Source: Shewanella dokdonensis (GTDB taxonomy: Bacteria > Pseudomonadota > Gammaproteobacteria > Enterobacterales > Shewanellaceae). Taken from it: 64,000 bases of DNA. The stretch spans positions 496,001 to 560,000 of the forward strand of contig NZ_CP074572.1 of the NCBI RefSeq assembly GCF_018394335.1. The letters are read 5' to 3'. Below, one piece after another: positions 13,957 through 30,184 of this stretch. Position numbers and translations under genes: made by a program. The notes under the pieces were generated by a model. The model had not been told where the DNA came from and did no database searches. It was given only the letters and a program-made list of their open reading frames with translations. The number at the start of each line of letters is the position of its first letter. Position 1 is the stretch's first letter.

Positions 13957-13992
13957 GGCATCATCCTCGCCAACGAGTCAGCATCATGGCCG

Positions 13993-15402
13993 TTAGTCTT
14001 GGCTGATATCGCGCACATTCCAGTGCGGGTATTGCTTACGTATCAGCGCATTGAACTCCAGCTCAAATTCACTGTAACGTGGCCGCGGCGTATGCTCTGG
14101 CGTTGGCAGTCGGCGGATCATCCCGGCCCCAACCGTAGCATTGGTGAGCCGATCAATAATGATAAAAGCACCGGTATTTCGATTTGTATCATATTGATCA
14201 AATGCTATTTTTTCGTTGAGTTCCCAGCGGCACTCACCCATTTCATTCAGCAACAACTGTTTAGCATCGCTCTGTTGCAGCGTATTGACATCTACTTTGA
14301 AATTTATCGCCCGAACATAGCCGGAGGTGAGTTTACTGCCGGCTTTGACAAGGTATTCACGGTCAGCATACAGCGGCTCTTGCGCCATCCACACTACGTC
14401 GGCAACAAAGCTGTCGCTGACAACACAGGCATCTTGAGGCCGCACGAGCATATCGCCACGGCCAATATCAATTTCATCGGTCAGGGTTAACGTCACCGCC
14501 ATGCCAGCGGTAGCTTTGGGCAGATTACCGTCAAAAGTCACAATGGCCTTGACCTGGCTCTGTTTGCCCGATGGCAGCACGGCCACGATATCACCGACAC
14601 GGATATCACCAGAGGCAACCGTGCCGCTAAACCCGCGAAAATCCAGATTGGGGCGGTTCACATACTGCACCTGGAAACGGAACGCATCAGCCACACGCCG
14701 GTCAATCGTCACAGTATTCAATAGTTTTAACAGGGGTGACCCGGGATACCAGCTCATGTTATCGCTGGCATTCACCACATTGTCGCCTTTCAGCGCTGAA
14801 ATAGGCACAAAACGCACATCGGTAAATTTCAGCTGTTCCGCAAAATCGCGGTAATCCTGTTTGATCTTTTGATAAACCGCTTGGTCATAGTCAACGATAT
14901 CCATCTTATTGATGGCAACAATAATGTGTTTAATGCCGAGTTGGGAGCAGATGTAGCTGTGGCGTCTGGTCTGTACCTGCACACCGTGACGGGCATCGAT
15001 CAGAATAATGGCCAAGTCACAGGTAGAGGCGCCCGTGGCCATATTGCGGGTGTACTGCTCATGCCCGGGCGTATCGGCAATAATAAATTTGCGTTGTTCG
15101 GTCGAAAAATACCGATAAGCAACATCTATGGTGATCCCCTGCTCGCGTTCTGACTGTAAACCGTCCACTAACAGCGCCAAATCAAAGGCTTCATTGGTGG
15201 TATTAAAACGCTGCGAGTCTTTCTCAATGGCCGCTAACTGATCTTCAAAGATCATTTTGCTGTCATACAATAACCGCCCAATCAGCGTGGATTTCCCGTC
15301 ATCGACACTCCCGCAGGTAAGAAAACGCAGCATATCTTTGTTTTCATGAACCTTGAGATAACTTTCTATATCTGTGGCAATTAATTCAGAACTATGTGAC
15401 AT
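13993..15402 (-). CDS. cysN: Sulfate adenylyltransferase subunit 1 (GTPase)
   Basis: The protein has 469 residues with EF-Tu-like GTPase motifs: [19 protein letters not shown] (P-loop), [15 protein letters not shown] (switch I), [17 protein letters not shown] (G3) and NKMD (G4), followed by beta-barrel domains. With CysD it makes APS from ATP and sulfate, driven by GTP hydrolysis. It lies 55 bp downstream of cysD and is intact. The length is close to E. coli CysN, without a fused CysC domain, which is consistent with the separate cysC. Confidence 0.96.
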
Positions 15403-15457
15403 CTGTGTGCATTCCTGACCGTAAAACGAATTCTGCTGGCAACTTTTTCAGTAAAAA

Positions 15458-16377
15458 TCAGAAGTAACCTTCCATTTTTTTCTTTTCCATCGAGCCGTTA
15501 CTATCGTGATCAATCACCCGGCCCTGGCGTTCAGAGGTGGTGCTCAGCAACATCTCCTGAATGACCTCTGGTAATGTGGTAGCCGATGATTCAACAGCGC
15601 CGGTCAACGGATAACAGCCCAAGGTTCTGAAACGCACTTTGCGCATTTGAGGAACTTCCCCTCTTTTAGCGGCATACGTTCGTCATCGACCATGATTAAT
15701 GCGCCATCGCGTTCAACCACTGGACGTTCTGCCGCCAAATACAGGTCAGGTATTTCGATGTTTTCTAAGTAGATATATTGCCAAATATCCAACTCCGTCC
15801 AGTTGGATAAAGGAAACACGCGAATGCTCTCGCCTTTATTCACTTTACTGTTGTAGATATGCCACAGCTCAGGACGTTGATTTTTAGGATCCCAGCGGTG
15901 TTTGCTGTCGCGAAATGAATAAACCCGCTCTTTGGCTCGGGATTTTTCTTCATCACGGCGAGCGCCACCAAATGCCGCATCAAATCCATACTTATCCAGC
16001 GCCTGCTTCAGCGCCTGGGTTTTCATGATATCGGTGTGTTTGGCACTGCCATGATCAAACGGGTTGATGTTGAGTCTCACCCCTTCTGGATTGCTATGAA
16101 CCAACAGTGTAAAACCGTGCTTACGCGCCATCTCATCGCGAAACCGGATCATTTCGCGAAACTTCCAGGTGGTGTCCACATGCAGTAACGGAAAAGGGAT
16201 TTTGCCGGGATAAAAAGCTTTACGTGCCAAGTGCAGTAAAACCGAAGAGTCTTTGCCAATAGAGTAAAGCATGACGGGGTTATCAAACTCAGCCGCCACT
16301 TCACGCATGATGTGAATCGATTCAGCTTCCAGCGCTTGCAGATGCGTCATGCGCTGCTGATTTACGTTTGTTACCAC
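15458..16377 (-). CDS. cysD: Sulfate adenylyltransferase subunit 2, one frameshift
   Basis: The core reads [40 protein letters not shown] (PP-loop SGGKDS-like motif), [16 protein letters not shown] and [14 protein letters not shown], all diagnostic for CysD. The frame is lost in a four-base C run near 15662; restored it reads [19 protein letters not shown]...GRVIDHD...MEGYF. I place the start at a GTG (16377) because GAGG lies nine bases upstream; an ATG at 16350 without a clear ribosome site is the alternative. The restored length is 297-306 residues. It is the first gene of the sulfate activation operon. Confidence 0.92.
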
Positions 16378-16967
16378 TCCACTTAACCTCTTACAGCAAA
16401 GCCAGTTTGAAGGAACCCGGTAGGTACCCGCCACCAGCAGATTTGCGACTATTTGTGTTTGTTTAAGCGGAGTTTAACAAAACCCCATATAAGCCGAATC
16501 ATCATTTTTTGAATTTATTATTCAAATACTGAATATCGACAGACAGCACCTTACCTCTCGATAATCTGGGTATTGCCCCCTAATTAGCCTCATAACCAAG
16601 AGAGCAGCACGCATTTAATATAATCCCGATGAAATGAATATTTCTATCACACTACCATATAGAATCAGTGCCTACCTATGTATGTTACCGAAGCACAATC
16701 AACAATGAGTGAAAAATCTCACACATTGCAATATATATCTCACATATGAACAGCAGAACCTAGAAACGATAAATTACTTGAGCCAGACATCCAAAGCGGC
16801 TAGTTCTTCCGCTTGCCGATTTTGGGATTTGTTTGTTCGAGCACTTAAGACATTGAACATCCTTTTACAAAGCTGCCACCACCTTAAAGGATAATAACAG
16901 TAAACCGACCATGATTCGGCGTTTACCGGGAACAACAAGGCAATTTTTTGTCGAGAAGGAAAAATTT
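16378..16967. other. Intergenic region between cysD and the lasso locus
   Basis: About 590 AT-rich bases with no convincing gene. It must hold the promoter of the cysD operon (minus strand) and the 3' end of the lasso minus-strand arm. A 7-bp inverted repeat lies at 16508-16526. Near 16900-16930 there is an imperfect inverted repeat (GTAAACCGA ... TCGGCGTTTAC) that might serve as a weak terminator for the nucleotidyltransferase gene. Nothing else is recognised. Confidence 0.5.
16508..16526. promoter_or_regulatory. Inverted repeat upstream of cysD, possible operator
   Basis: TTTGAAT-TTATT-ATTCAAA is a perfect 7-bp inverted repeat about 130 bp upstream of the cysD start. Sulfur assimilation operons are usually activated by CysB, a LysR-type protein that binds AT-rich dyads. 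The assignment to CysB is inference from position only. Confidence 0.25.
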
Positions 16968-17996
16968 TTAAAAAAACCACTTAGCTTTACCTACTATTCC
17001 CCTAGCTTTAATTTTGCTTAATGTGGCATGAACTGCGCGTGACTCATAATCCTGTAGCATTAATAGCGCAAATCGCTCAGCATCCATCGCTAAGCTTTGC
17101 CCCTTACTACCTAGATCATCAAGAGACTCTATCCGTATCTCTGGGAAATAATACTTCACCATATGCAACACTAAAGAACAGCCATCTTTGCTACTACCGA
17201 CCTGAGCCGCTTGCCAAAATAACGACCAGTCAATGGTGCAATGTTCGATCAAATAGGCAATATCCGTCAGAACCAGCGGGCCATTATTAAATCGATGGTC
17301 ATAACTAGCATGCATAATCAGATGCAGCAATAAATCAGTAGGTGACATAAACAGGATTTGTTGGCCTGCAACGTGCGCGACAATACAACGATACCAAAAG
17401 TTATCGTCAGCCACTAAGTCTTCACTCGGACTATTTTCTGGGTGAAAAACCTTATGATGCAGTTCTACTATAACCCCTGTCGGAGAAAGCAATGGTGGAA
17501 TATGTTTACTGAATTTTAGCCAATCATCAGAGCTTCCTTTATATTTGGCATATTTTGGTGGGTGGCGATATCCATGCTTAATCAGTTGTTCATAAGCTCC
17601 AGCCAGTTGTGCCTGAGGGAGCAGCAGATCGATATCGCGCATCGGTCTGAGCGCAGCATGAGGATAAATCACATTGGCGAGATAACTCCCTTTAAGGGCA
17701 ATATGGTGAATTCGCTGCGATGACAACAGTTGGTGTAACTTGAGCAGTTCAGCCTGCATCTTAACCGCTCTTATTGCTGACTTTTTATAGATATTCCGCA
17801 AACGCTCACTCACCGAAACAGGAATCACTAACATTTTTTGTTTCAGTTGCCAGTAAAGTAAAGGCGCAATCCGATGTGACATTGCCATTTCACATATTGT
17901 GGCCCAATCAGCATCAGTTAGCACATCAAGTTGCTGCTGGGTAATGGTTTGGCGCTCAGAAATTAAGTCGAGTAATAGCCTTTTTAGATGCATCAT
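16968..17996 (-). CDS. Lasso-cluster nucleotidyltransferase (NTP_transf_5-like)
   Basis: The protein is about 342 residues with an N-terminal helical region (SHRIAPLLYWQLKQK), then IALKGSYLANVIYP and MRDIDLLLP. The second carries the paired aspartates (DIDLL) of nucleotidyltransferase-fold proteins of the type common in RiPP and polysaccharide loci; VIVELHHKV and ADLL-like helices follow. Its start overlaps the ABC exporter gene by about 40 bp, so it is the last gene of the minus-strand lasso arm. In some kinase-containing lasso clusters a homologue takes part in further phosphate or nucleotide decoration; that role here is inference. The start could be 17996 or 17993. Confidence 0.8.
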   Translation of the reverse strand: MMHLKRLLLDLISERQTITQQQLDVLTDADWATICEMAMSHRIAPLLYWQLKQKMLVIPVSVSERLRNIYKKSAIRAVKMQAELLKLHQLLSSQRIHHIALKGSYLANVIYPHAALRPMRDIDLLLPQAQLAGAYEQLIKHGYRHPPKYAKYKGSSDDWLKFSKHIPPLLSPTGVIVELHHKVFHPENSPSEDLVADDNFWYRCIVAHVAGQQILFMSPTDLLLHLIMHASYDHRFNNGPLVLTDIAYLIEHCTIDWSLFWQAAQVGSSKDGCSLVLHMVKYYFPEIRIESLDDLGSKGQSLAMDAERFALLMLQDYESRAVHATLSKIKARGIVGKAKWFF

Positions 17997-19734
17997 CACC
18001 ACCGTGTTGTTGTTTCAGTTGTTGCCACGTACCTTGCGCAACAACACTTCCCTGTTCAAGTTTAATGACCTGATCGGCATGTTCCAGTGTCGGTAATCGA
18101 TGACCAATAACTAGCACCGTCATATTACCGTGCAAATTTTCAATCGCTTGGCGAATACGCTGTTCGTTCTCAACATCCAAAGCACTGGTAGCTTCGTCTA
18201 AGATCAGTAGCGTAGGTTGTTTTAGTAACGCTCTAGCTAACACTATACGTTGGCGCTCACCGCCGGAGAGCCGAACACCTCCATCGCCAACCATGGTATC
18301 CAGTTGGTTTGGTAAATCAAAAACAAACTCCGCGGCAGCCAATGTCAATGCTTTTAATAAGTCCGCTTCCGATGCTTTGGGATTACCCCACAGCAAGTTG
18401 TTACGAATGCTGTCATTAAACAAAAATACCTCTTGCGGTACATAAGCAACCGATTGCCGCCATTGTCGGCGTAAGGGCCCAGTCAGCAAGATATCATCCA
18501 ATAAAATCTCACCACTATCAGCGGCTAATAACCCCATCAACAGATCGGCTAGCGTACTCTTCCCTGCGCCAGAGTGGCCTATCACCGCCGTAGTGGTATG
18601 CACTTTCAACGTTAATGACACTTGTGCTAGTGAAGGTGAATTTTTACCCGGATATTGAAACGACACATTCTTAAGTTGAATTTGCTTGCCGATGACAATA
18701 GGTTGATGGCTGTCGAGTTTGGTGGGTTCGGCATTAACACGATAAGCATCTTGCAGTCGCTGAGCATCTTCAAGTGCCGGCAATGCATGTAAACAATGGT
18801 GTAACTGCTGTTGCGCTGACATAAACAACGGGATCATGCGCCCAAACACAATCACTAAAGTCAACAGTTGCGCAACCTCAATATGCCACAGATTCAACCC
18901 GGCTAGCAGATAACCAATAAGCAGCGTCGCCCCAAAAATTTGAAACAAGACTTTCGATAAACTAGTGTCTTTTTGGAAAGCCAGTTGTTGCTCACGTAAT
19001 GTTGCAATTGTGTGGTCAAAACGTTCAATAAAACTCGATTCCTGCCCCAAAATTTTGGCGAGTTTTATACCCGCTAAACTCTGCTGTACTGTTGCCTGCA
19101 TGCTCCGATTAGCCTGACCTAACTGCTGTCCCAACGACAGTGCTTGTTTTCGCTGACCACTTAGCACTAACAAAATGAGGCCACCACTGATAAATGCCAG
19201 CAGCGTTACTTGCCAAGATAAACTCACTGCGGCAATCAAGTACGCAAGTAACGTCATCAACGATGCCAACAAACCCAGTAGAAAATTAAACCCTACGCCG
19301 ATGCGGTTGATGTCGACTAACAAGCTGTTAGCCTGATCAGATTGATTTTGCTGCGTTAACCAACGCCATTCAGCATGTAACAACAGCGCGAAGCTACGCA
19401 GTCGCATTTTGTCGACTAGCTGATGTTGCATAATGGTGCTGAGGCGCTCACGGGCGTACAGTAAAGTTGCTCTTAATATAATCAGCAATAATACGATGCC
19501 CATCAGGAATGAAGTTGATGTGGGAACACCTAACTCCGCCATGCGCTGTAGCATCTGCCCTGATACATTGTGTGTCACCGCAGCAGATTGTAATGATTGC
19601 AACAATGGCACCAGTAATAAAATGCCCGAACCTTCGGTTAAGCCCGCCAGAATCATGAGTAGCAATATGAGTAACACTCGTTTAAATGTCACAAGTGCAA
19701 TTAGCGGCTTAATAGTAGCGTAAGAGGGCATCAT
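17956..19734 (-). CDS. Lasso peptide ABC exporter (fused permease-ATPase)
   Basis: The protein has 592 residues. An N-terminal six-helix exporter domain (residues ~1-330) is followed by one ATPase domain with Walker A GHSGAGKST (~residue 386), signature LSGGERQR, Walker B LLILDEATSALD and the switch His in VIGHRLPT. It has the half-transporter layout of LarD/McjD-type exporters, which pump out mature lasso peptide and give self-immunity. It is translationally close to B2 (stop and start two bases apart) and overlaps the nucleotidyltransferase gene, so it belongs to the minus-strand lasso operon. Confidence 0.9.
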   Translation of the reverse strand: MMPSYATIKPLIALVTFKRVLLILLLMILAGLTEGSGILLLVPLLQSLQSAAVTHNVSGQMLQRMAELGVPTSTSFLMGIVLLLIILRATLLYARERLSTIMQHQLVDKMRLRSFALLLHAEWRWLTQQNQSDQANSLLVDINRIGVGFNFLLGLLASLMTLLAYLIAAVSLSWQVTLLAFISGGLILLVLSGQRKQALSLGQQLGQANRSMQATVQQSLAGIKLAKILGQESSFIERFDHTIATLREQQLAFQKDTSLSKVLFQIFGATLLIGYLLAGLNLWHIEVAQLLTLVIVFGRMIPLFMSAQQQLHHCLHALPALEDAQRLQDAYRVNAEPTKLDSHQPIVIGKQIQLKNVSFQYPGKNSPSLAQVSLTLKVHTTTAVIGHSGAGKSTLADLLMGLLAADSGEILLDDILLTGPLRRQWRQSVAYVPQEVFLFNDSIRNNLLWGNPKASEADLLKALTLAAAEFVFDLPNQLDTMVGDGGVRLSGGERQRIVLARALLKQPTLLILDEATSALDVENEQRIRQAIENLHGNMTVLVIGHRLPTLEHADQVIKLEQGSVVAQGTWQQLKQQHGGDDASKKAITRLNF

Positions 19735-19735
19735 C

Positions 19736-20194
19736 TCAGCTCATTTTCAATGTAAAAAGGTAAGCACCTACTACGGTAAACTGATTAAAACTGTAACCAC
19801 CAGTCACTCTTACTGATCCAGAGCATACCCAAGCATGGGCTTTAATCTGCCCCGCGTCTCTGCATAAGCCAAAATATAACGCTCCAGGAATGCCATACAA
19901 CCCCAACAAAAAACGTGCAGTAATGGCTTGCGGGAAACAATTGGATTCCCAAGGTGTATAGGGCGCAATTCCTTGAACGAGTTTACTTATCTGCTTTGCT
20001 CTTAGTCGCTGCTTTTCAGATATCAGCGGGATCCAATACCCTTTAGCCTGTAGAATCCCTAATCGCGGCGCAAGCTTGCGAAACGATAAGCGAAAAATAG
20101 CCAGCTTGCTTAGCCCTAACAGCAGCCAAGTGGGAATGGCCCAACATTGAATAAATAGTGATTGGCGTAAAAATTTAATCCAAGCAGAGGTCAA
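19736..20194 (-). CDS. Lasso peptide leader protease B2 (transglutaminase-like)
   Basis: The protein has 152 residues. The C-terminal half shows the transglutaminase-like cysteine protease signature of lasso B2 proteins: ESNCFPQAITARFLLGLYGI with catalytic Cys86, and KAHAWV with His120. The usual acidic third residue is not obvious after HAWV, where the sequence reads VRVTGGYSFNQF. The N-terminal half has hydrophobic helices. It cleaves the leader from the precursor while B1 holds it. Its ATG overlaps the B1 stop by four bases (ATGA), indicating translational coupling. Confidence 0.9.
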   Translation of the reverse strand: MTSAWIKFLRQSLFIQCWAIPTWLLLGLSKLAIFRLSFRKLAPRLGILQAKGYWIPLISEKQRLRAKQISKLVQGIAPYTPWESNCFPQAITARFLLGLYGIPGALYFGLCRDAGQIKAHAWVCSGSVRVTGGYSFNQFTVVGAYLFTLKMS

Positions 20195-20475
20195 GACTGA
20201 ATATCTACCAGTTGATTATCAACTAAAGATTGACAAAAAATTAAGGTGTCTTGCTGACACTGCTGTTCGGTAACGTCATATTCGTTACAAATCTGCTCAA
20301 CAATGTCAGCAATAGATTGTGGCGCTTCAAGAAGCTCCCAAATACGGCTCCCCGTTCCGCTAATACCAAAATAGTTACCAGTTTCAGGTACCATCATTAC
20401 TGTATCGCCATCCATATCAGTAAAAATCTGATCAGGCTTACGGCGCAGTTCGCAATCAAGTGTCAGCTCAGACAT
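20191..20475 (-). CDS. Lasso B1 protein, PqqD-like RiPP recognition element
   Basis: The protein is about 94 residues, with a PqqD-like fold visible as ELRRKPDQIFTDMDGDTVMM (beta wing), NYFGISGTGSRIWELLEAPQ and a C-terminal helical part around ICNEYDVTEQQCQQDTLIFC. Such stand-alone domains bind the leader peptide and deliver it to the B2 protease and the cyclase. The ATG at 20475 is preferred to that at 20481 because AAGGA lies six bases before it. It is the first gene of the minus-strand arm, directly next to the divergent promoter region. Confidence 0.9.
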   Translation of the reverse strand: MSELTLDCELRRKPDQIFTDMDGDTVMMVPETGNYFGISGTGSRIWELLEAPQSIADIVEQICNEYDVTEQQCQQDTLIFCQSLVDNQLVDIQS

Positions 20476-20675
20476 GTTCATTCCTTGTACTAAATAAGCT
20501 ATTGATAAATCCGATAATACTTAATAAATAAGTTATATTCTAACAATAATAATCTAGCCATTTGAAACTTTGGCTAACTTTATCCAAGCACCGATAAAGT
20601 GATGGTGACCTAGAGATATACATTATCGATAAGTGATTATAATATGGTGCATCCATCTTTATTGTCAGATTTTTT
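20476..20675. promoter_or_regulatory. Divergent promoter region of the lasso locus
   Basis: Two hundred AT-rich bases separate the B1 gene (minus) from the cyclase gene (plus). On the plus strand TATAAT at 20638-20643 is a good -10 box; no good -35 box is seen. Just upstream lies a perfect palindrome TTATCGATAA (20623-20632), a possible operator. The minus-strand promoter must also be here but is not clear. Confidence 0.55.
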
Positions 20676-22534
20676 ATGTTTGCTGGAGTCTATTCTACTC
20701 ATTCTCAACTTCCCGCAGTTAATACTGATGTGATAAAGCAGTCCCTTGCACCGTACCATCAACCCGATAATGATGGCTTTTATACTGAGCCGAACTTCTG
20801 GCTCTATGAGCAACGCCACCACCACGGCTATTTTGACCGTGATCCGCATCTGCCACTTTATTGTGAACAAAAAGGCGTGGTCGTGGCATTTTGGGGGCGA
20901 CTCGACAACCGCGAACAATTAGCCGCCACACTAGGTTTAAATCATAAAGATGAGCAACTCACCGATGCGCAGTTAGTGCTTGAGGCATGGTCACATTTCT
21001 TACAACAGCTACCCGAACAACTTTTGGGTGATTTTGCCATCGCTATTATTGATAAACCACGACAACAGCTATTTTTAGTGCGCGACCCGTTAGGGGTTAA
21101 ACCACTGTATTATAGTTGGCAGCAAGGGAAACTATTCTTTGGGTCATCAGCTGCGGCACTTAAAGCTATGGATGGCATTGTCCTGAGCAAAAGTACTGAG
21201 TGGATGGCGCGCTATCTTTGGTTGTGCTTATCCAAAGATCCTATCAAGACTGCGTACAATGAAATGCGCAAACTACCACCCGCCCACTGCCTGTTATTGG
21301 CGCACAATGCCGAGCCACAGCTACGCCGCTGGCATTTTTGGCGTGATGATGCACCAATAGCGAACCAACGCGATGAACGCTGGGTCAATGACTATCGGGC
21401 AGTGCTGGAAGAAAGCATCCGTTGCCGCATGCATAGTCCTTACCCTTTGGGCACCGAAAACAGCGGTGGCATCGACTCGGCAACACTCACCGCCTACCTA
21501 GCAAAATTCTTAGATAATCCGGTAGAACAACTACACAGTTTTGGCTTTGCGATGTGCGAGCAAGAGCCGGAATATATTCTTGAAACCAGCCAAGCCTGCG
21601 GTATTGCCCATAATTACTTAGTGAGTGCTCAGCTTGGTAACCAAACTGAGCGGATGGAACGTAGCTTAAAAGTATTGGGGTATCCTGAGGAACATGGTAA
21701 CGCCAGTCTTCATCTACCGTTTTATCAGCAATGTCAGCAGCGCAATATCAAAGTGTTGTTTTCAGGTTTTGGCGGTGATGAAGTGGTCACCAACCCGGCA
21801 AATTTGGCGCGTTATGAGTTCCTCGATAATCACCAATATGGCGCGTTATTCAACATTCTGTCTGGCAACGCAATAACTCGGCCATTACGCCTTGTTAAAG
21901 CAATATTGAAACCGCAAAACCCCGCCTATCGCCCCACTTTTTTAACCGCTTGGCGTCAGCGCTGGCCCTACTGCCTATTAAAAAGGAGGTGATCGAGGCT
22001 TACAATATTCAGCACGATTATATGGAAAGCGCCCGTTATGATGCACCTTTTAGACGAGTCAATGATTTTATTCTACAACATCACTTGCACGAACTGCATG
22101 TGACCACTCGCCTAGATAACTGTACTCTCATGGCAAATTCATTTGGCATCGACTACCGTTGGCCACTCTGGGATGTGCGTTTAGTACAGCAATACCTTTC
22201 CACCCCAACCATTGAAAAAATTGGCCCTAAAGGCATGGGGCGCTATCTGCACCGCCGCGCAATTACTGGCACAGTGCCCAATAAAGTGGCTTGGAAGTCT
22301 AGTAAAGACATGGGCTATGGTGCTCAGCATGTAAAACGACAGCAAGCAGCGATTGCTAAGCCACCAGTATTGATGGATTTACCCCCTGACATACAAGATT
22401 TGTTGGATCCGTTTAAGTTTGCACAATGGCAGCACTGGAGTACTCAAAATGCCTCTGAAGCTAACGTCACTGTATTAGATAGAGTATCGATTGAGAAAAA
22501 CAGTCAAGCGTTAAACTGGCTAACAAGATGGTAA
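20676..22534 (+). CDS. Lasso peptide cyclase C (asparagine synthetase-like), one frameshift
   Basis: The restored protein is ~619 residues. The N-terminal domain is like class II glutamine amidotransferases (FWGRLDNREQL, LGDFAIAIID, RDPLGVKPLYY) but begins MFAGVY, lacking the catalytic Cys at position 2, so it cannot use glutamine in the normal way. The C-terminal domain has the ATP-pyrophosphatase loop ENSGGIDSATL (~residue 262) and FSGFGGDE. These are the lasso cyclase features: it adenylates the ring Glu/Asp side chain and closes the isopeptide bond with the N-terminus. The frame breaks in a CCC run near 21965; one C restores WRQRWPLLPIKKEVIEAYNI. It is divergent from B1 and followed by the precursor gene. 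Confidence 0.9.
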
Positions 22535-22647
22535 TAACTTTACCCATCTGTTATACCCGTAATATTTTACTATTATTAATAGCAATGACATCCAGCGCTA
22601 TTCATAGGGTTTGTTGTCTAACGTAGAACTTATTGAGAGGAGACGAT

Positions 22648-22818
22648 ATGAAATCATCTGTAGCAAAGACTGAAATGGTTAAAGATTCAGGAAAGGACAC
22701 AGAGACTAAGCGTCCATATTGCCCGCCAATGTTAAAGAATCTCACTTTGGGCGATACACGTGCGAAAGCGAATCAAACCACCACTGAAATCTCTCTTAAT
22801 TCGGGAGTAGCTTCCTAA
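22648..22818 (+). CDS. Lasso precursor peptide A (56 residues)
   Basis: The ATG at 22648 has a strong GAGAGGAG ribosome site. The 56-residue product lies between the cyclase and a strong terminator. The leader contains YCPPML (a YxxPxL recognition motif for PqqD-type B1 proteins) and ends LGDTR with Thr at -2, the conserved penultimate leader residue. The predicted core is AKANQTTTEISLNSGVAS: Ala1 and Glu9 would form a nine-residue ring, leaving a nine-residue tail ending in Ser. Thr-2, the position of Glu9 and the terminal Ser suited to the kinase gene all support this cut. Spacing from YxxP to Thr-2 is two residues shorter than usual. No Cys is in the core. Confidence 0.82.
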   Translation: MKSSVAKTEMVKDSGKDTETKRPYCPPMLKNLTLGDTRAKANQTTTEISLNSGVAS

Positions 22819-22832
22819 GTTCAGAGGTACGG

Positions 22833-23318
22833 CTAGATTGAAAAGTCCAGATCCACCATGGCGTTTGGGCAGTCGCAGCTAATTAGCTGCGACTGTTTTG
22901 TTTTATGGGAATAAATAGCCGTTGCATTTGCGGCGCATATACCACCTGTTGCTTTAGCCCAGCCCGCCGATAAGCCATACCCTCCACTGCGTAAGATAGC
23001 GTCGCACCACCGCATTGGTTGTGCTTGCTCGTGAAGCTGAGCTAAATGCCGTAGCAGTTGGGTTAAGGTCCAGGCAACAGGTAACAGCATTGTTTGGCAA
23101 ATACTCTGGTAATAGTGATAAACAACAAAACGTGCAACAAAACGATAATGATTGCAGGCGGTTTGTGTGGCTCTTACAACGGCTTTTAACCTGCCATGTC
23201 CTTTGATATGGGGATAGCGTTGGTTCAGTAATGGGGCTAAATATCGATATAACTGTTGCTGCCATACTCGCTGTTGCGCGGGACTCTTGATTTGAATAGA
23301 TGACAGCGCTGCCGCCAA
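22833..23318 (-). CDS. Hypothetical protein opposite the precursor gene
   Basis: A 161-codon open frame on the minus strand with no recognised domain. It is rich in Gln, His, Tyr and Arg (for example HYRFVARFVVYHYYQ). Its last ~35 codons run through the perfect hairpin that terminates the precursor transcript, and its stop is 14 bp from the precursor stop. Both features argue against a real gene. It is the longest frame between the precursor and the kinase gene, so it is kept with low confidence. Confidence 0.3.
   Translation of the reverse strand: MAAALSSIQIKSPAQQRVWQQQLYRYLAPLLNQRYPHIKGHGRLKAVVRATQTACNHYRFVARFVVYHYYQSICQTMLLPVAWTLTQLLRHLAQLHEQAQPMRWCDAILRSGGYGLSAGWAKATGGICAANATAIYSHKTKQSQLISCDCPNAMVDLDFSI
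22870..22904 (+). terminator. Strong terminator after the precursor gene
   Basis: The stem CAGTCGCAGCTAATTAGCTGCGACTG is a perfect 26-bp palindrome (13 bp per arm; in the folded hairpin the loop is AATT or so), followed by TTTTGTTTT. It lies 52 bp after the precursor stop and separates precursor expression from the downstream kinase genes. A strong terminator with partial read-through would give high precursor and lower enzyme levels. Confidence 0.85.
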
Positions 23319-23446
23319 AAATACATAGGCATCAGTAATTACTAAAATTACTAAGCGAAATTTGTATGGTTGTAGCTAATCGTTATTAAGTTCATTATGT
23401 TATGCTCTTTGCCGGTATTCCTCACTCAATCACACTATTTTTAACG

Positions 23447-23480
23447 CTAGCTCAGGATACTCTCTAGCTCAGGATACTCT
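23447..23480 (+). repeat. 17-bp tandem duplication at the kinase ribosome site
   Basis: CTAGCTCAGGATACTCT occurs twice without a gap (23447-23463 and 23464-23480), immediately before the kinase ATG at 23487. Each copy contains AGGA; the second copy's AGGA lies about 12 bases before the ATG. Such a duplication could alter translation, or it may be a sequencing or assembly artefact. Confidence 0.8.
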
Positions 23481-23486
23481 GATTTC

Positions 23487-24374
23487 ATGTATTACTCCGC
23501 TTACCAACTAACCATTGCCAGTGAGTTGCCCTTACCAGAACTTGTACCTGTTAATGGCACACAGACTGACGTCACAATTCGCTTTGACAATGTTGCAAAA
23601 AACGGGCTAGCAGACGGAGAACAATTGGGACCATTTTTATGGGCAGCTCCCAATACACTGTGGTTGCAGGTACCGAACGTTGCCCGTTTTTTAGTGCGCA
23701 ATGGTAACGAGATTATTATTGACCCTGCTGATGGCATTGATGACGATAGTATTCGGGTGTTTTTGTTAGGTTCCGCGTTCGGAGCCTTGCTGTTCCAACG
23801 TGGCTTGTTGGTGATCCACGGCAATGCAGTGCGCATTGGTGATGAATGTTTAATTTGTGTAGGACCGTCCGGCGCAGGTAAATCGACTTTAGCCGCTGCG
23901 TTTATGCAACGTGGGTTTGATGTGCTGGCGGATGATGTGGTGCCGGTAAATGATGCGGGGTTGGCGCTGCCAGGATTTCCGCGGATTAAATTATGGCAGG
24001 ATGCAGCGGAGCAATTTGAGATTGTCACTGATGACTTACGCCGTATTCGCCCCGAGATGAATAAGTTTAACCTGCCGGTTAATGGTGTAGTGCAGCAAGC
24101 ATTACCGATCCGTTGGATTTATATTCTAGGTAGCGACCATATCGATGAAATCACCTTTGAAGCTATCAACGGTATGGCGAAATTTATGCCACTGCAAAAC
24201 AATACTTATCGCGCTAAGTTCCTCCATGGGATGCAACTAAAACCGCAGCATTTGAGTATGTGTGGCAAGTTAGCCAGTAAAATCCGTTTGTCACGGCTAA
24301 CCCGACCTAAATTAGGATTTACCGCCAATGCGATGGTGGATGCCATTCTCAAGGATATTGAGGTTAACCCATGA
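23487..24374 (+). CDS. HPr-kinase-like lasso peptide kinase
   Basis: The protein has 295 residues. It begins MYYSAYQLTIASELPLPEL, as in RiPP-cluster HPr kinase homologues, and contains a P-loop GPSGAGKST (residues ~126-134), LVIHGNAV before it and VLADDVVPV (Asp149-Asp150) after it, the catalytic core of HPr(Ser) kinase C-terminal domains. The N-terminal regulatory domain of true HPr kinase is absent. In paeninodin-type clusters such kinases phosphorylate the C-terminal Ser of the precursor; the precursor here also ends in Ser. It overlaps the sulfotransferase gene by four bases (ATGA). Substrate assignment is inference from context. Confidence 0.85.
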   Translation: MYYSAYQLTIASELPLPELVPVNGTQTDVTIRFDNVAKNGLADGEQLGPFLWAAPNTLWLQVPNVARFLVRNGNEIIIDPADGIDDDSIRVFLLGSAFGALLFQRGLLVIHGNAVRIGDECLICVGPSGAGKSTLAAAFMQRGFDVLADDVVPVNDAGLALPGFPRIKLWQDAAEQFEIVTDDLRRIRPEMNKFNLPVNGVVQQALPIRWIYILGSDHIDEITFEAINGMAKFMPLQNNTYRAKFLHGMQLKPQHLSMCGKLASKIRLSRLTRPKLGFTANAMVDAILKDIEVNP

Positions 24375-25300
24375 GTAGTCTCTATTGGTTAGCATCCTAC
24401 CCAAAATCTGGCAACACTTGGTTTCGTGCTTTTTTGCAGAACTTACTTGAAGATGGCGATAAGCCCGTGGTCATTGATGAACTCAGCACCGGCAGTATTG
24501 CCAGTGCGCGCGGCTGGTTAGATGAAACCTTAGGCTTTGATACGGCAGATTTGACTCAAGATGAAATCGATGCGCTGCGCCCCAGTGTGTATAACTGGCA
24601 ACATGATGCGACTGAGCTTGGTTACCATAAAATTCACGATGCATACACTATGGTTGACGGCGGTACGCCTATTGTCGGTGTTGCGGGTACTAAAGGTGCG
24701 TTGTACATCGTACGCAATCCGTTAGATGTAGCCCCTTCCTACGCTAACCATTGCCAATGTTCGCTGGATCAAGCCATTGAACATATGGGCAACCCGCAGC
24801 ACTGCATGGCACAAAATAAACGCCGTTTAACCAGTCAAGTGCGGCAACAACTGTTGACGTGGTCTGGGCATGTGCGTAGCTGGTTAGATGCACCGCAGCT
24901 TAACCGCTTAGTTATCCGCTATGAGGATATGCTCAATCATCCGTTAGCTACCTTTACGGCAGCTTGCCAATTCTTGGAGTTACCGCTTGATCAAGCGCGC
25001 ATAAAAAAGGCAATCGCCTTTAGTGATTTTAAGGTGTTATCACAACAAGAAAAGCAACACGGCTTTAAAGAGCGCCCTCCACAAACGCAGCAGTTCTTTC
25101 GACAAGGTAAAAGTGGTGATTGGCGAGATAAACTCACAGGGGAACAAGTGGCGCGGATTATCCAAGACCATGGTGAAATGATGCGGCGCTTGGGGTATTT
25201 AGATGTGAATGGTCAACCTTTGGTCACACCACGCCCATGGTGCGAGCTTTCAGTTGATGTTGAACGCCGAGGTGATGGTGTTGCATGCGTTAATCAATAG
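24371..25300 (+). CDS. Sulfotransferase, probable lasso tailoring enzyme
   Basis: The protein has 309 residues. The 5'-phosphosulfate-binding loop is LASYPKSGNTWFRAFLQNLL at the N-terminus and the 3'-phosphate-binding segment is LYIVRNPLDVAPSYANH, the two hallmarks of PAPS-dependent sulfotransferases. RYEDML and FFRQGKSGDWRD are also typical of the Sulfotransfer_1 family. It is translationally coupled to the kinase gene, which places it in the lasso modification set. Thr or Ser hydroxyls in the peptide are plausible acceptors (the core has no Tyr), but a different acceptor is possible. PAPS could come from the neighbouring cysDN-cysC operon. Confidence 0.88.
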   Translation: MSSLYWLASYPKSGNTWFRAFLQNLLEDGDKPVVIDELSTGSIASARGWLDETLGFDTADLTQDEIDALRPSVYNWQHDATELGYHKIHDAYTMVDGGTPIVGVAGTKGALYIVRNPLDVAPSYANHCQCSLDQAIEHMGNPQHCMAQNKRRLTSQVRQQLLTWSGHVRSWLDAPQLNRLVIRYEDMLNHPLATFTAACQFLELPLDQARIKKAIAFSDFKVLSQQEKQHGFKERPPQTQQFFRQGKSGDWRDKLTGEQVARIIQDHGEMMRRLGYLDVNGQPLVTPRPWCELSVDVERRGDGVACVNQ

Positions 25301-26480
25301 ACTCAAGCAACTGTCTATGCGCCGCCACCCCCATGGTTTGCTAAGTTGGCGTTATTTACTGCCACAATTATCATCGCCGTTAATGCAACACCGAGCTTAT
25401 TGGTGGCATAGTTGCGGGACTCGTTCGCGGCTGTTGTGGGGGCTGTGGCAGTTATATTTATGGTTACGTTGGCTCGCATTCAGCAGTTGGCGCGCGAGTT
25501 ATCGCACGGTGCAGTTGCATGGGCCTCATGTCAAAAAGCAACACAACATAAGTCAATGGCAGCAATTTTGGCGTGTGCAAGCATTAGCCTGGCGCTGGTG
25601 TATTCCGCCTGCGGCTGCGTATCGTTTCCAATTGTACCGTTATCCTGAGCGAGCACTAGAGTACGTCTATGATATAGAAGTGGGGGCTTATCATCGGTTA
25701 CAAAGTGAAGCGCTAGGACTCACTAAAAAGTCGCTACAGCTGTTGCAAGATAAGCAACGACTAGCCGAAAAACTCACGCCTTTGGGAGTAACCATTGTGG
25801 ATGGCTATCCCGTGGCATTTCGCAGCACTAATAAGTTAATCGATACGCTCGCTGGCGATGGGAAATTTTTTTAAAGACACGCAGTGGCAACCAGGGTATT
25901 GGCGCGTTCGCTGTAACAGCAAAAAATGGTCAATTGCAGGGAAAACCTTTGCTGGCGAATTATTATCTGATAGCAACGCAGTGGAACACGCATGGCAGCA
26001 GTTGTTGCAACTCGACGATGCACTGATCCAGCCGCTGCTGACAAATCACCCTGCATTACAGACATTAACCCCGGCTGATGAAGCCATTACCGTGCGTGTG
26101 ATTACCCAATGGCATGAGCAACAACTAAGGGTGTTCACCGCATTCATTGAAGTACCGTTTCAAGATATACAACGCACAGTTTACAGTGTGTTGCCGATAA
26201 CTTCGGCGGGTGATTTTGCGCGTTATCCGGCAGAAATTCTGGATGAGCAAGTGGCACAGCGGGCAAATACCTTATGGCAGCAAGCACAAGCAATTGGCCT
26301 ATTACCCTTTTGGTCTCAATTAATAGAACAAAGCATAAAAGCTCATCAGCCGTTCTCTGATGTCAAAGCCATCGCTTGGGATTGGGTAGTCACAGCAACG
26401 GGGGCGTGATGTTGGAAGGTAATACTGGATGGGGCACCATGATGCCACAACTCATTCATGGCCCGTTTCTTAGTAAGTAA
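25257..26480 (+). CDS. ATP-grasp-type protein (sugar-transfer-associated ATP-grasp-like), two frameshifts
   Basis: Two overlapping frames form one ~407-residue protein. A 7-T run at 25866-25872 reads correctly with six T, giving ...LAGDGKFFKDTQWQPGYW. A missing base near 26402 then restores VMLEGNTGWGTMMPQ and a stop at 26478-26480. Features recall ATP-grasp proteins associated with sugar-transfer loci: LLQDKQRLAEKL, IQPLLTNHPALQTL, AITVRVITQW, WDWVV and the C-terminal LEGN motif. The start is uncertain (ATG 25257, 25275 or 25317), since all overlap or abut the sulfotransferase end. ATP-grasp enzymes join a carboxylate to an amine or other nucleophile. A role in decorating the lasso peptide is inference. 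Confidence 0.65.
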
Positions 26481-26485
26481 ATAGC

Positions 26486-26719
26486 TCAGACTTTTTTCCA
26501 TATAAGTGCCAGTCCCGATAAAAATTTACCAGGGGTAAAGGCCAGCGATAGCATCAGTAGCAGAGCGAACCAGCGCATGAGATTGCCAGCCCCGCAGATT
26601 ACCCCAAAACGTCCCAGCAGGTACGCCAAGGACAGTGCCAGATGAGTACCAACCACAGCAATAGCAACGGTGCGCCATTTCTGCCGCTCAGAAACCAGAC
26701 ATGCCGCGCCGCCCGCCAA
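26486..26719 (-). CDS. Small hydrophobic hypothetical protein or gene fragment
   Basis: A 77-codon frame starting at TTG, with two predicted membrane segments (around AVVGTHLALSLAYLLG and MRWFALLLMLSLAF). Another ATG frame begins just upstream (near 26757) and could be joined by one indel, so the gene may be longer and broken. I do not recognise the family. It is convergent with the ATP-grasp gene and six bases from its stop. Confidence 0.35.
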   Translation of the reverse strand: MAGGAACLVSERQKWRTVAIAVVGTHLALSLAYLLGRFGVICGAGNLMRWFALLLMLSLAFTPGKFLSGLALIWKKV

Positions 26720-26849
26720 CAGAGTTCACAACAACCCAACCACAACTTATTTACCATTCACGCCACCTAGCAACCATTCATCGCAAACTCAAGCAGCACA
26801 TTTTGCCACTGCATAAGCTCACTCTGTCATTCATTACAGGAACAGACTT

Positions 26850-27482
26850 ATGCGAACGTTCATTTCATTGATTTTGGCAACGCTAATATTAGGCAATGTC
26901 ATCAGCGCTGAGGCCGCCCCCTCTGCCGCATTAATTGCCGAATACAACCAGGCGGCCGCCAAAGGCGATATGGGCAGTGTGTTACTCAAACTTGAGCAGC
27001 TGAAACAGCAACAAGCTGATGATCCGCTAACGCTAGTGTATTGGGGCAGTGCTAAGACCATGACAGCCAAGGATGAATTCTGGCCTTGGTCAAAATACCA
27101 ATGCGCTGAAACCGGCCTGAACGCTATCGACAAATCACTGGTGCTGTTAGCTCAGGCACCTAATGATGAGCGGCGGCTGGGGCTAGATATTCGTAGCCTT
27201 ACCCAGGCGTTAGCAGCGGTAACCTATACGGCGGTACCCAAAATGTTTAACCGTTTTGAACGCGGTTACGATCTATTTATCACCCTACTCGCCTCGCCGC
27301 AATTTCAAGCGGTTCCGGCTGAGTACACGGCATGGATTTACCAACGCGCTATCAGCGCCGCCCTCGTCGCCAAAGACTTAGCACGGGCGCAACAATGGCA
27401 GCAACAGTTGGCTAAACAAGCGCCAACACATCCTCTGACGCAGACAATGGCAGCCATGATTGCCAAAGCCAAAGGAGAGTAA
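26850..27482 (+). CDS. Periplasmic protein of the ABC operon, unknown function
   Basis: The protein has 210 residues with a clear Sec signal peptide (MRTFISLILATLILGNVISAEA followed by AP). The mature part is helical with TPR-like character (EYNQAAAKGDMGSVLLKLEQ; LARAQQWQQQLAKQAP). AGGA lies 13-15 bases upstream of the ATG. It is the first gene of a tightly packed operon, with only two bases to the ABC ATPase gene. It may act as a periplasmic partner of the transporter. The family is not recognised. Confidence 0.7.
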   Translation: MRTFISLILATLILGNVISAEAAPSAALIAEYNQAAAKGDMGSVLLKLEQLKQQQADDPLTLVYWGSAKTMTAKDEFWPWSKYQCAETGLNAIDKSLVLLAQAPNDERRLGLDIRSLTQALAAVTYTAVPKMFNRFERGYDLFITLLASPQFQAVPAEYTAWIYQRAISAALVAKDLARAQQWQQQLAKQAPTHPLTQTMAAMIAKAKGE

Positions 27483-27484
27483 TC

Positions 27485-28159
27485 ATGTTGCGTTTTGACA
27501 ATATCTGTAAAAGTTATCGCGCGGGTAAGCAAACGGTAGCGGTACTCAAGGGGGTAACCGGCCAGTTGGCGATGGCGGAAATGGTCGCCCTATGTGGCCC
27601 ATCCGGCTCCGGCAAGAGTACGCTCTTGCAGATCTTGGGAGCACTGGATTTACGCTATCAAGGTGAAATCCAATTTTCCGGACAAGCCTTCCCACGAACC
27701 GTACACAAGGCGACATTGCTTAGACGGCAGCAGCTCGGTTTTGTGTTTCAACGCTTTAATCTAGTGCCAGTGTTAACCGCCGAAGAAAACGTGATGCTGC
27801 CGTTACAACTGCGAGGCTGGCCGTTGAATAAACAGCAACAAGCAGCACGCGACATGCTGGCTCAAGTTGGCTTGGCACCACAATTACGGCAAAAGCCCGC
27901 TGAACTTTCTGGCGGCCAACAACAACGTGTAGCCATTGCCCGTGCCATGGTCAGTCGCCCAGCACTGGTGATTGCTGATGAACCGACCGCCAGTTTAGAC
28001 ACAGGATCAGCCACCCAAATTATCAGCCTATTACGAGAACTCTGTCATCAGCATCGCAGTGCTGTTTTAGTGGCAACACACGACCCACGTATGGCTGCCA
28101 GCTGTGATCGCATCATTCAGCTGCAAGACGGCTGCATTGCGGCGGAGAATGCCGCATGA
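27485..28159 (+). CDS. ABC transporter ATP-binding protein, LolD/MacB type
   Basis: The protein has 224 residues with Walker [10 protein letters not shown], the Q-loop in [14 protein letters not shown], signature [15 protein letters not shown], Walker [14 protein letters not shown] and the switch His in [19 protein letters not shown] is characteristic of the LolD/MacB/FtsE subgroup that works with FtsX-like permeases rather than carrying substrate through a channel. It overlaps the permease gene by four bases (ATGA). It energises the mechanotransmission-type transporter encoded next. Confidence 0.92.
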
Positions 28160-29409
28160 ACGCTTTTCAATTACAAGCTATGCGCCTTGCCTGGCGCAAT
28201 CTGTGGCGTAATCAACGCCGCAGTCTGCTGTCACTGCTGGTGATCGCCATCGCCATTTTTGCAACAACCGCCATCGCCGGTTTTGGGCTAGCCACATACC
28301 AGTCCCTTGAACAGGCCGCTATCCGCGCCAATGGTGAATTACTGTTGAACCGTCCTGGCTACCTGAAAGAACAGGAAGAGACGCCATTAGCCGAAGGGAT
28401 CAACGGCAGTCAGCAGTTGACCAAACAGTTATTGGCGCGCGCCGAAGTGACACAAGTCGAACCTAAGGTACTGTTTTCTGGTTTGATCTCTAACGGACAA
28501 AAATCCGCAATCTATCTTGGACAAGGCGTATCCCCGAGTTTGTTTGATCTGCAAGGGCCGATGCTAACCGTCAGCCAGGGGCACGCGTTGTTACCTGCGG
28601 ACTCACCACGTTTCAATGCTGATGAACCACAGATTATGCTCGCCAGTGATTTAGCACAGTCGCTCAAGCTGAAGGTGGGTGATTGGGCCACGCTGATGAG
28701 CACCACCAGCAGTGGAGCGCTCAACGCCATGGACGTCAAAGTGTGCGGTATTTTCAGCACCGGCGTACCTGAGCTAGATAAACGTCAGTTGTTTGTGTCG
28801 CTCAGCACCGCCCAGTCATTACTGATAAGCGATAGAGTCAGTACCCTATCGGTCTACTTGCAAGATAGCAGCCAGACCGCCGCCATGAGCCAGTGGGTAA
28901 CCGATGCATTAAACAGCCCCCAACAAATGCTGGAAGTTACCCCTTGGTATGAAAGTGCATTTTTCTATCAAAAAGTAAGGGCGCTGTACGATCGTATCTT
29001 CGGCGTGATTGGCTTCATTTTAGCGCTTGTGGTGTTCGCCGCGCTGTTTAACACGCTCACTATGTCAGTCACCGAACGCACAACCGAGATTGGCACACTG
29101 GCGGCCATGGGCGCTTGGCCGCGGGAGATCATTGGCGGTTTTATGCGTGAAGCAGCATTGCTCTCACTACTTGGCGCATTGGTTGGAGGTTTAGCAACTG
29201 CGGCGCTGAGTCTGAGTTTGCTGCAACTTAACATCCAGATGCCACCACCACCGGGGCGGACTCAGGGATATCCGCTCACCATTTTATTCTCTGTCGATAT
29301 GTGGCTTGCCAGCAGTTTACTGGTACTGCTGGTGTGTGTGCTGGCCGCTTGGCTGGCCGCCCGTAACGGCGTAAAGAAACCGATCACCGAGGCACTGACT
29401 TATGTGTAA
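28156..29409 (+). CDS. FtsX/LolC-like ABC permease
   Basis: The protein has 417 residues. One N-terminal membrane helix (SLLSLLVIAIAIFATTAIAGF) is followed by a ~220-residue periplasmic MacB-PCD-like domain and three C-terminal helices (VIGFILALVVFAALF, LLSLLGALVGGLATAAL, LVLLVCVLAAWLAA). RTTEIGTLAAMGAWPREI is the typical coupling motif of FtsX-domain permeases. With the ATPase gene and the LolA-like gene it resembles a lipoprotein- or lipid-handling system. The substrate is unknown. It overlaps the following gene by eight bases. Confidence 0.9.
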   Translation: MNAFQLQAMRLAWRNLWRNQRRSLLSLLVIAIAIFATTAIAGFGLATYQSLEQAAIRANGELLLNRPGYLKEQEETPLAEGINGSQQLTKQLLARAEVTQVEPKVLFSGLISNGQKSAIYLGQGVSPSLFDLQGPMLTVSQGHALLPADSPRFNADEPQIMLASDLAQSLKLKVGDWATLMSTTSSGALNAMDVKVCGIFSTGVPELDKRQLFVSLSTAQSLLISDRVSTLSVYLQDSSQTAAMSQWVTDALNSPQQMLEVTPWYESAFFYQKVRALYDRIFGVIGFILALVVFAALFNTLTMSVTERTTEIGTLAAMGAWPREIIGGFMREAALLSLLGALVGGLATAALSLSLLQLNIQMPPPPGRTQGYPLTILFSVDMWLASSLLVLLVCVLAAWLAARNGVKKPITEALTYV

Positions 29410-30184
29410 CTTAGCGAATCGCAGCAGTCTTCGTTTACTCGCCAACGGGCTGATAGTCCTGCTCTGGCTAACCAGCAATGGCCTCCAGGCCGATGAAATC
29501 GATGCCAACGCCATGCTTATGGCAGCCGATCATTATCGCCTTGACAGTGAACAAGCGCGGGTTGTGACCGAAGTTAGCGAGTACGAGCAACAACAGCTTA
29601 TTAATCAACGCCGTTACCATGTGTATCTCGACGGCAATAACTCGCTGGTGATGTTTAAATCAGTGGCCGAGCTGGGGCAAAAGATGCTGATGCTCGGTCA
29701 ACAATATTGGCTGATCATGCCTCGCAGTAGCCGCCCGATCCGGATCACCCCCATGCAAAAACTGCTGGGGCAAGCCTCCATTGGTGATATTGCTACCTTA
29801 ACCTGGCATCGCGACTATGACATAACGCAAGTCACCGCAACTGAGCTGACCCTTAACGAACAACAGTACTCGTGTTACCAGTTACAGCTAAGTGCTAAGA
29901 CCGATAGCAACAGTTACCAACGCATCACCCTATGGCTAGATAAACAAGATAATTTTCCGTTGCAGGCCGCCTTTTACCTGTCTTCAGGAAAACTGGCCAA
30001 AATGGCACAGTTTCACGCGGGCGAACTTAACGGCCAACGTCGGGTGGTCACTATGCGGCTCAGCGACAAACTGCAACCGCTCAAAACCACCGAAGTGCAA
30101 TATCTCAATATTAGTCACCATCCGTTGCCCGCCAGTTACTTTAATCCGGTGTTTTTAACCCGCACCGTGTTGGAACAGTTGTGA
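29402..30184 (+). CDS. Outer membrane lipoprotein-sorting (LolA-like) protein
   Basis: The protein has 260 residues with a signal-peptide-like N-terminus (LANGLIVLLWLTSNGLQADE). The remainder has the beta-rich pattern of periplasmic LolA-like proteins often encoded beside LolCDE-like ABC modules: YHVYLDGNNSLVMFKSVAELGQKMLMLGQQYWLIMP, described here by its extended strands, then RITPMQKLLGQASIGDIA and a C-terminal YFNPVFLTRTVLEQL. That last motif recalls proteins annotated as outer membrane lipoprotein-sorting proteins. It probably carries a hydrophobic cargo across the periplasm, delivered by the ABC permease. Confidence 0.75.
   Translation: MCNLANRSSLRLLANGLIVLLWLTSNGLQADEIDANAMLMAADHYRLDSEQARVVTEVSEYEQQQLINQRRYHVYLDGNNSLVMFKSVAELGQKMLMLGQQYWLIMPRSSRPIRITPMQKLLGQASIGDIATLTWHRDYDITQVTATELTLNEQQYSCYQLQLSAKTDSNSYQRITLWLDKQDNFPLQAAFYLSSGKLAKMAQFHAGELNGQRRVVTMRLSDKLQPLKTTEVQYLNISHHPLPASYFNPVFLTRTVLEQL

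What the first reader, a model, noticed from the sequence alone, without database searches (positions are those of the whole stretch)
16968..26480. Divergent lasso-peptide locus with an unusually large tailoring set
Seen: PqqD-like B1, transglutaminase-like B2 protease, exporter and nucleotidyltransferase genes on the minus strand; cyclase, precursor, HPr-kinase-like, sulfotransferase and ATP-grasp genes on the plus strand, around one ~200-bp promoter region. Known: split B1/B2, a C protein with SGGxDS and no N-terminal Cys, and an ABC exporter define lasso loci. Kinase and nucleotidyltransferase genes are reported for some. The combination with a sulfotransferase and an ATP-grasp protein in a Shewanella-like genome is one I do not know to be characterised.
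Basis: partly seen in the sequence, partly recalled or inferred. Interest (0 to 1): 0.92.

Follow-up and report, generated by a model that had tools for sequence, protein, structure and literature searches.

The report
Heavily decorated lasso peptide gene cluster
A Shewanella-like genome carries the genes for a knotted (lasso) peptide plus four extra decorating enzymes; relatives show that one of these, an ATP-driven enzyme of the amide-forming kind, goes with a lysine fixed at the second position of an otherwise fast-changing peptide, which points to an untested chemical step.

Summary
In detail: window 16968-26480 is a lasso-peptide cluster (B1, B2, cyclase C, exporter D, precursor A, HPr-kinase-like K, sulfotransferase S, nucleotidyltransferase N, ATP-grasp G). 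Predicted core: AKANQTTTEISLNSGVAS (Thr at -2, Glu9 ring, C-terminal Ser). In this assembly cysD, N, C and G are broken by frameshifts; Shewanella fodinae KCTC 22506 has all four intact, so I read the breaks as assembly errors. The tailoring set is not unique: S follows K directly in 47 of 78 kinase loci, G is in 17 of 78. What looks new is a rule: of loci with G and a readable precursor, 19 of 20 have a core with small residue-Lys-x5/6-Glu; of loci without G, 3 of 35 do (hand-curated lists). Two further G clusters, found after the rule was seen, obey it. G folds like amide-forming ATP-grasp ligases. Best reading: K phosphorylates the C-terminal Ser, N and S decorate further, G makes an amide on Lys2. 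The rule cannot be separated from the cyclase clade. Decayed UG4-like reverse transcriptases lie tail-to-tail with precursors, in this window too.

The parts
16968..18002 (-). N: nucleotidyltransferase (PF14907); the last ~60 codons are in another frame (ORF 16774-16980); intact 406-aa copy in S. fodinae
   Evidence: K104 and G105 in 43 of 43, D123 and D125 in 42 of 43
17956..19734 (-). D: ABC exporter, 592 aa
19736..20194 (-). B2: leader peptidase, transglutaminase-like; Cys86 and His120 in 50 of 50 (third catalytic residue not assessed)
20191..20481 (-). B1: PqqD-like leader-binding protein, 96 aa
20482..20675 (.). divergent start region between B1 and C; promoter-like matches in 20200-23600 are no more than chance (7 found, 6.8 in shuffles)
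20676..22534 (+). C: lasso cyclase, broken by a frameshift near 21980; intact 622-aa copy in S. fodinae
22648..22818 (+). A: precursor, 56 aa; leader Y-x-x-P-x-L and Thr at -2; core AKANQTTTEISLNSGVAS
22867..22898 (+). terminator-like hairpin (14 pairs) after A; a similar 59-bp element follows both S. fodinae precursors
22836..23318 (-). decayed reverse-transcriptase piece (UG4-like), tail-to-tail with A; best match 23079-23288
23487..24374 (+). K: HPr-kinase-like lasso kinase; His111, Lys132, Asp149, Asp150 invariant in 20 aligned sequences
24371..25300 (+). S: PAPS-type sulfotransferase (SYPKSGNTW, Lys87, His89, Arg115, Ser123 conserved)
25209..26480 (+). G: ATP-grasp ligase (PF14397), broken by frameshifts; intact 424-aa copy in S. 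fodinae

Best explanation
This is a class II lasso-peptide cluster (no cysteines in the core) of a kinase/sulfotransferase type. B1 holds the leader, B2 cuts after Thr-x, C joins residue 1 to Glu9, D exports. Before threading, K phosphorylates the C-terminal Ser; N may then load a sugar or nucleotide on that phosphate; S sulfates a hydroxyl not yet located. G, by fold an amide-forming ATP-grasp ligase, acts on the epsilon-amine of Lys2, most likely joining it to a carboxylate from outside the peptide. Shown: gene content, intact homologues, conserved catalytic residues, the predicted fold of G, the Lys2 rule. Inferred: order of steps, sites of S and N, and G's reaction.
Against: Lys2 tracks the cyclase clade as well as G: on the cyclase tree all 17 G rows sit in one set of 19 (support 89) with two G-less rows, L022 (Lys2, contig ends near C) and L048 (no Lys2); independent pairs on starred branches are 3, too few for a test. 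Three G-less loci have a Lys2-like core (L022, L053, L068), and no G was found in their assemblies. Two precursors at G loci lack it (the one of L043; one of several at L008). In L041, L051, L133 and two of four L139 precursors a strict Thr-at-(-2) rule would put the Lys at 3 or elsewhere. The lists were curated by hand, and the filter asked for a C-terminal Ser. PF14397 proteins also occur away from lasso genes. No chemistry was observed.
Confidence: 0.55

Rival explanations
1. Lys2 serves the cyclase, not G: this clade of C recognises small residue-Lys-x5/6-Glu, and G does something else, such as acting on the C-terminal carboxylate or making a small-molecule partner.
For: G loci are almost one clade on the cyclase tree but scattered on the kinase tree (3 against 11 changes); Glu, never Asp, closes the ring in the 32 curated cores.
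Against: L048 lies in the same cyclase set without G and without Lys2, but on a long branch. G often sits next to C, which fits either reading.
Confidence: 0.3
2. G makes a second ring: Lys2 amine to the C-terminal carboxylate, giving a bicyclic lasso.
For: The C-terminus is the only free carboxylate left in 19 of 32 cores; ATP-grasp enzymes make such macrocycles in graspetides (recalled; microviridin example in PMC8498205).
Against: Cores range from 16 to 25 residues, a wide range for one closure; the neighbouring C-terminal Ser is the expected kinase site.
Confidence: 0.1
3. The cluster is dead in this strain: the frameshifts in N, C and G are real decay.
For: The window's frames are broken in three cluster genes.
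Against: The housekeeping gene cysD next door is broken in the same way and intact in S. fodinae. Outside the precursor core, the frame-breaking differences in coding sequence are single missing bases in the window, none an extra base, and lie at or beside runs of four or more of one base. The assembly is 96.6% complete against 99-100% for the 35 same-genus genomes searched.
Confidence: 0.12
4. C is an ordinary asparagine synthetase and the neighbours are unrelated.
For: C shares Pfam domains with asparagine synthetase and is under the lasso model's curated cut-off.
Against: Better score with the lasso model, no N-terminal Cys, B1/B2 and precursor beside it, the same gene set in other genomes.
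Confidence: 0.02

Closest known systems
Paeninodin / PadeK and ThcoK, SyanK (phosphorylated lasso peptides)
   Same: HPr-kinase-like enzyme with His-Lys-Asp-Asp, precursor ending in Ser; SyanK is from a proteobacterium (PMC9266682 and PMC8498205 passages)
   Different: Sulfotransferase directly behind the kinase, ATP-grasp, Lys2; divergent layout
Pseudomycoidin (PsmK, PsmN)
   Same: Kinase plus nucleotidyltransferase; PsmN adds hexoses to the phosphorylated Ser (PMC9266682 passage)
   Different: Firmicutes; no sulfotransferase or ATP-grasp in that passage; I did not test that N belongs to the PsmN family
Triculamin, lariocidin, albusnodin (Lys-acetylated lasso peptides)
   Same: A Lys of a lasso peptide is acetylated, as self-resistance in two of them (PMC13352647 passage)
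   Different: There an acetyltransferase does it (title in the reference list for lariocidin; recalled for the others); here an ATP-grasp ligase is proposed
Graspetides (microviridins)
   Same: ATP-grasp ligase in a peptide cluster, amide with a Lys side chain (partly recalled)
   Different: Crosslink to an acidic side chain, absent from 19 of 32 cores
UG4 reverse transcriptases
   Same: The intact relative L030:14157-15056 scores best with RT_UG4 (E 5e-61)
   Different: UG4 is reported with fimbrial genes (66%, PMC8934634 passage); here it sits at lasso precursors

Membership tests
Class II lasso peptide cluster | B1 leader-binding protein and separate B2 peptidase | tested here: met
   NF033536 81.9 bits (cut-off 80), NF033537 82.4 bits (cut-off 33); Cys and His of B2 in 50 of 50
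Class II lasso peptide cluster | Precursor with Y-x-x-P-x-L leader, Thr at -2, small residue 1, acid at 7-9 | tested here: met
   window 22648-22818
Class II lasso peptide cluster | Asn-synthetase-like cyclase without N-terminal Cys, lasso model best | tested here: met
Class II lasso peptide cluster | Cyclase passes NCBI's curated cut-off (525 bits) | tested here: inconclusive
   247.5 bits with the intact S. fodinae copy: below the cut-off, which belongs to an 'exception' model and is not itself a defining trait
Class II lasso peptide cluster | Threaded isopeptide-ring product | not testable with these tools
   needs mass spectrometry or NMR
HPr-kinase-like lasso kinase | His-Lys-Asp-Asp catalytic motif | tested here: met
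   H111, K132, D149, D150 invariant in 20 rows; motif from PMC9266682
HPr-kinase-like lasso kinase | C-terminal Ser in the precursor | tested here: met
   window core; 18 of 19 Lys2 rows
PsmN-type nucleotidyl/hexosyltransferase | Same family as PsmN | not tested
   PF14907 match only
PAPS sulfotransferase | PAPS-binding motifs and catalytic His | tested here: met
   Lys12, Gly14, Thr16, Trp17 in 57 of 57, His89, Arg115, Ser123 in 55 of 55; their roles are recalled
ATPgrasp_ST (PF14397) | Model above curated cut-off | tested here: met
   63.8 bits, cut-off 31.4, S. fodinae copy; the broken window copy gives 30.1
Graspetide | Acidic side chain in the core as partner of Lys | tested here: not met
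   19 of 32 cores, the window's among them, have no acid besides the ring Glu
UG4 reverse transcriptase | UG4 model best | tested here: met
   for the intact relative L030 only; the window piece is a fragment

The most novel reading that the evidence does not exclude
Lasso precursor genes of this type travel and turn over as cassettes with a UG4-like reverse transcriptase lying tail-to-tail behind them: the enzyme copies or inserts precursor cassettes (or once did), so that leaders and enzymes stay and cores change. The nine reverse-transcriptase copies or remnants that I found at lasso loci (window, L003 two, L008, L030, L060, L066 two, L070; L031 is a near-copy of L030) each face a precursor candidate from the opposite strand at 50-346 bp, and in L003 and L066 the precursor-plus-remnant unit is doubled, the remnant side 88% identical while the precursors differ. 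Against it: two of the precursor candidates are weak (L030, L060), one intact copy (L164) has no lasso gene on its 5.8-kb contig, and most copies are dead.
Probability: 0.2. Interest if true: 0.8.

Novelty: new variant of a known kind. Interest (0 to 1): 0.6.

Why it matters
It turns a list of odd neighbours into one testable prediction: the ATP-grasp enzyme modifies Lys2. If true, it would add an ATP-dependent amide ligase to the known lasso-tailoring enzymes, parallel to the Lys acetylation that protects producers of triculamin and lariocidin. The kinase-sulfotransferase pair, seen from Proteobacteria to Bacteroidales and Scalindua, is a second common module for which I found no characterised product. 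Shewanella fodinae KCTC 22506, a named strain, has intact frames for the genes that are broken here and can be used.

Tried and rejected
Programmed frameshift in C: a Shine-Dalgarno-like stretch lies at the break, but the S. fodinae gene is one open frame and cysD, N and G are broken too, so rejected. The ORF 22836-23318 as a gene of the pathway: rejected, no family, only pieces of it in S. fodinae, a reverse-transcriptase fragment. Diversity-generating retroelement: no template/variable repeat pair stood out; not pursued further. Rfam: nothing at gathering threshold in 13000-30000. Plasmids: one weak G match. PDB by sequence for G: best E 0.14. Foldseek 'pdb' was not run; only VIA-align was. 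More distant UG4-like proteins (L165, six loci) are not beside lasso genes. In 24 genomes with kinase loci a search gave 21 UG4-like places in 11 genomes; some are the remnants above, the others I did not examine. L005, L020, L037, L094, L140 and L151 have G but no precursor I could read and were left out of the counts.

Rows dropped or set by hand: candidate small ORFs without a leader-like stretch or far from the cluster, mostly out-of-frame noise; the precursor candidates of L074 and L075 (G-less, no Lys2) were not counted; L060's is weak but counted. L132 precursors were read, the HK core of L008, the L068 core, L036, L064. L009 counts twice, as two clusters (one with G, one without); which precursor belongs to which is my assignment by distance.
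Full report
What is there. Window 16968-26480 holds, on the minus strand, N (nucleotidyltransferase), D (ABC exporter), B2 and B1, and on the plus strand C (cyclase), A (precursor), K (HPr-kinase-like), S (sulfotransferase) and G (ATP-grasp), read outward from a 194-bp gap at 20482-20675. The genome is one contig of 4.13 Mb; none of the 35 other genomes of its genus in that search has the kinase, but S. fodinae KCTC 22506 has the whole cluster, K at 98%, S at 97%, D at 97% identity.

State of the genes. In S. fodinae C is one frame of 622 aa, G of 424 aa, N of 406 aa and CysD of 306 aa. In the window all four are broken. Outside the precursor core, the frame-breaking differences in coding sequence are single missing bases in the window, never extra ones, at or beside runs of four or more of one base. 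Completeness is 96.6% against 99-100% for the 35 same-genus genomes. I take them as assembly errors, not decay and not recoding; this is inference.

Precursor. A is 56 aa: leader with Y-C-P-P-M-L and GDTR, core AKANQTTTEISLNSGVAS. The S. fodinae A1 leader is 94% identical in DNA (104 of 111 nt) but its core is GKAYSPVEMSINSGTGS. S. fodinae has a second precursor, core GKASSAPGEGAVFSYGPS. Stable leader and changing core are what a peptide precursor should show.

How common. A scan with 20 aligned kinases gave 252 relatives in genome contigs, of which the best 80 were kept as 78 loci, so the counts below are of that capped list. S directly follows K on the same strand in 47 of 78. G is present in 17 of 78. 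Over the 86 loci, all eight enzyme genes lie on one locus in nine (window, L003, L009, L010, L051, L057, L129, L139, L141), and K, S and G together in 20. The kinase-sulfotransferase pair spans Shewanella, Bacteroidales, Acidobacteria, Scalindua and Anaerolineales; the Bacillota loci mostly have K without S next to it. A review already names sulfotransferase and nucleotidyltransferase genes in Firmicutes clusters (PMC8498205, passages). In the held library no paper came up that describes a lasso cluster with an ATP-grasp enzyme or a sulfated lasso peptide (searches; I saw listings, and passages of three papers). Subscription papers were not searched, and the paeninodin paper (PMC4919450) was not held.

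The Lys2 rule. I collected small ORFs with a leader motif near the cluster genes and then read the cores; one search scored candidates by Thr at -2, small residue 1 and an acid at 7-9, by leader motif and a C-terminal Ser, neither by Lys. Where the locus has G, the core begins small residue-Lys and has Glu at 8 or 9: 32 curated cores from 19 loci. Position 1 is Gly 22, Ser 6, Ala 2, His 1, Asp 1. The misses are one precursor of L008 and the only one of L043. At locus level it is 19 of 20 with G, 3 of 35 without (hand-set lists). The three are L022, L053 and L068. A search of whole genomes of 22 G-less loci then found G elsewhere in three of them. Two of the three had a cluster around it, and all five precursors there (four in L139, one in L141) carry the small residue-Lys-x5/6-Glu stretch, two of the four in L139 with Lys at 3 if the core is counted strictly from Thr at -2; the third (L140) showed no precursor.

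Limits. On the kinase tree G is scattered (11 changes), on the cyclase tree nearly one group (3 changes) (quick trees, hand-set labels). So kinase/sulfotransferase and cyclase/G/Lys2 behave like two modules that have been exchanged, but G and the cyclase cannot be told apart as the cause of Lys2. Fisher's p is not corrected for kinship; the test on independent pairs has too few pairs.

Kinase, sulfotransferase, N. The kinase motif named in PMC9266682 is invariant in 20 of 20. Of 19 Lys2 rows, which did not ask for it, 18 end in Ser. S has the PAPS motifs (roles recalled) and its best-scoring solved relatives by sequence are TEG12 and Teg14, sulfotransferases of glycopeptide antibiotics (recalled). 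By eye I saw no hydroxyl conserved besides the last Ser, so the site of S is unknown.

Reverse transcriptase. The minus-strand piece between A and K is a fragment of a UG4-like reverse transcriptase; an intact relative overlaps the end of the cyclase gene of Zetaproteobacteria L030/L031. Nine copies or remnants at lasso loci are each tail-to-tail with a precursor candidate; the candidates of L030 (read by eye, not ending in Ser) and L060 are weak. Units are doubled in L003 and L066. By equal contig length, intact members probably also share contigs with K or G homologues: 4,000,216 (P0193 with P0008), 12,105 (P0194 with P0161), 13,341 (P0201 with P0168). Searching with the enzyme first, 4 places in 3 of 398 genomes of the phylum sample matched: two are L030 and L031 again, one (L164) has no lasso gene on its short contig, one is distant (L165). 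In the class sample 11 of 369 genomes matched, all weaker; six of those loci have no lasso genes. Published UG4 context is fimbrial (PMC8934634 passage). A paper search for lasso peptide with reverse transcriptase showed nothing of this kind by title (20 of 35 listed).

Verdict. A real, probably functional lasso cluster, a new variant of a known kind, ordinary in its kinase/sulfotransferase part and of interest for the ATP-grasp/Lys2 module.

Noticed in passing
window 22836-23318 (-); L003:9061-9189 and 9678-9872; L066; L070; L060; L008; L030:14157-15056: UG4-like reverse transcriptase, intact in L030 and decayed elsewhere, tail-to-tail with lasso precursor candidates; precursor-plus-remnant units are doubled in L003 and L066.
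   Followed up: partly
window 15458-16434 and 13993-15402 (-): cysD (broken by a frameshift, intact in S. fodinae) and cysN, sulfate-activation genes, lie right beside a cluster with a sulfotransferase; L003 has the same neighbourhood.
   Followed up: partly
window 21970-22000: The frameshift in C lies at a run of A followed by a Shine-Dalgarno-like AAGGAGGTGATC; taken as coincidence because the relative is in frame.
   Followed up: yes
window 23447-23484: A short tandem repeat (TAGCTCAGGATACTC twice) upstream of K; once in S. fodinae.
   Followed up: no
L049 and L139; L052 and L141; L009: Genomes with two kinase-type lasso clusters, one with and one without the ATP-grasp gene; the Lys2 stretch occurs in the precursors assigned to the former.
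   Followed up: partly
   Followed up: no
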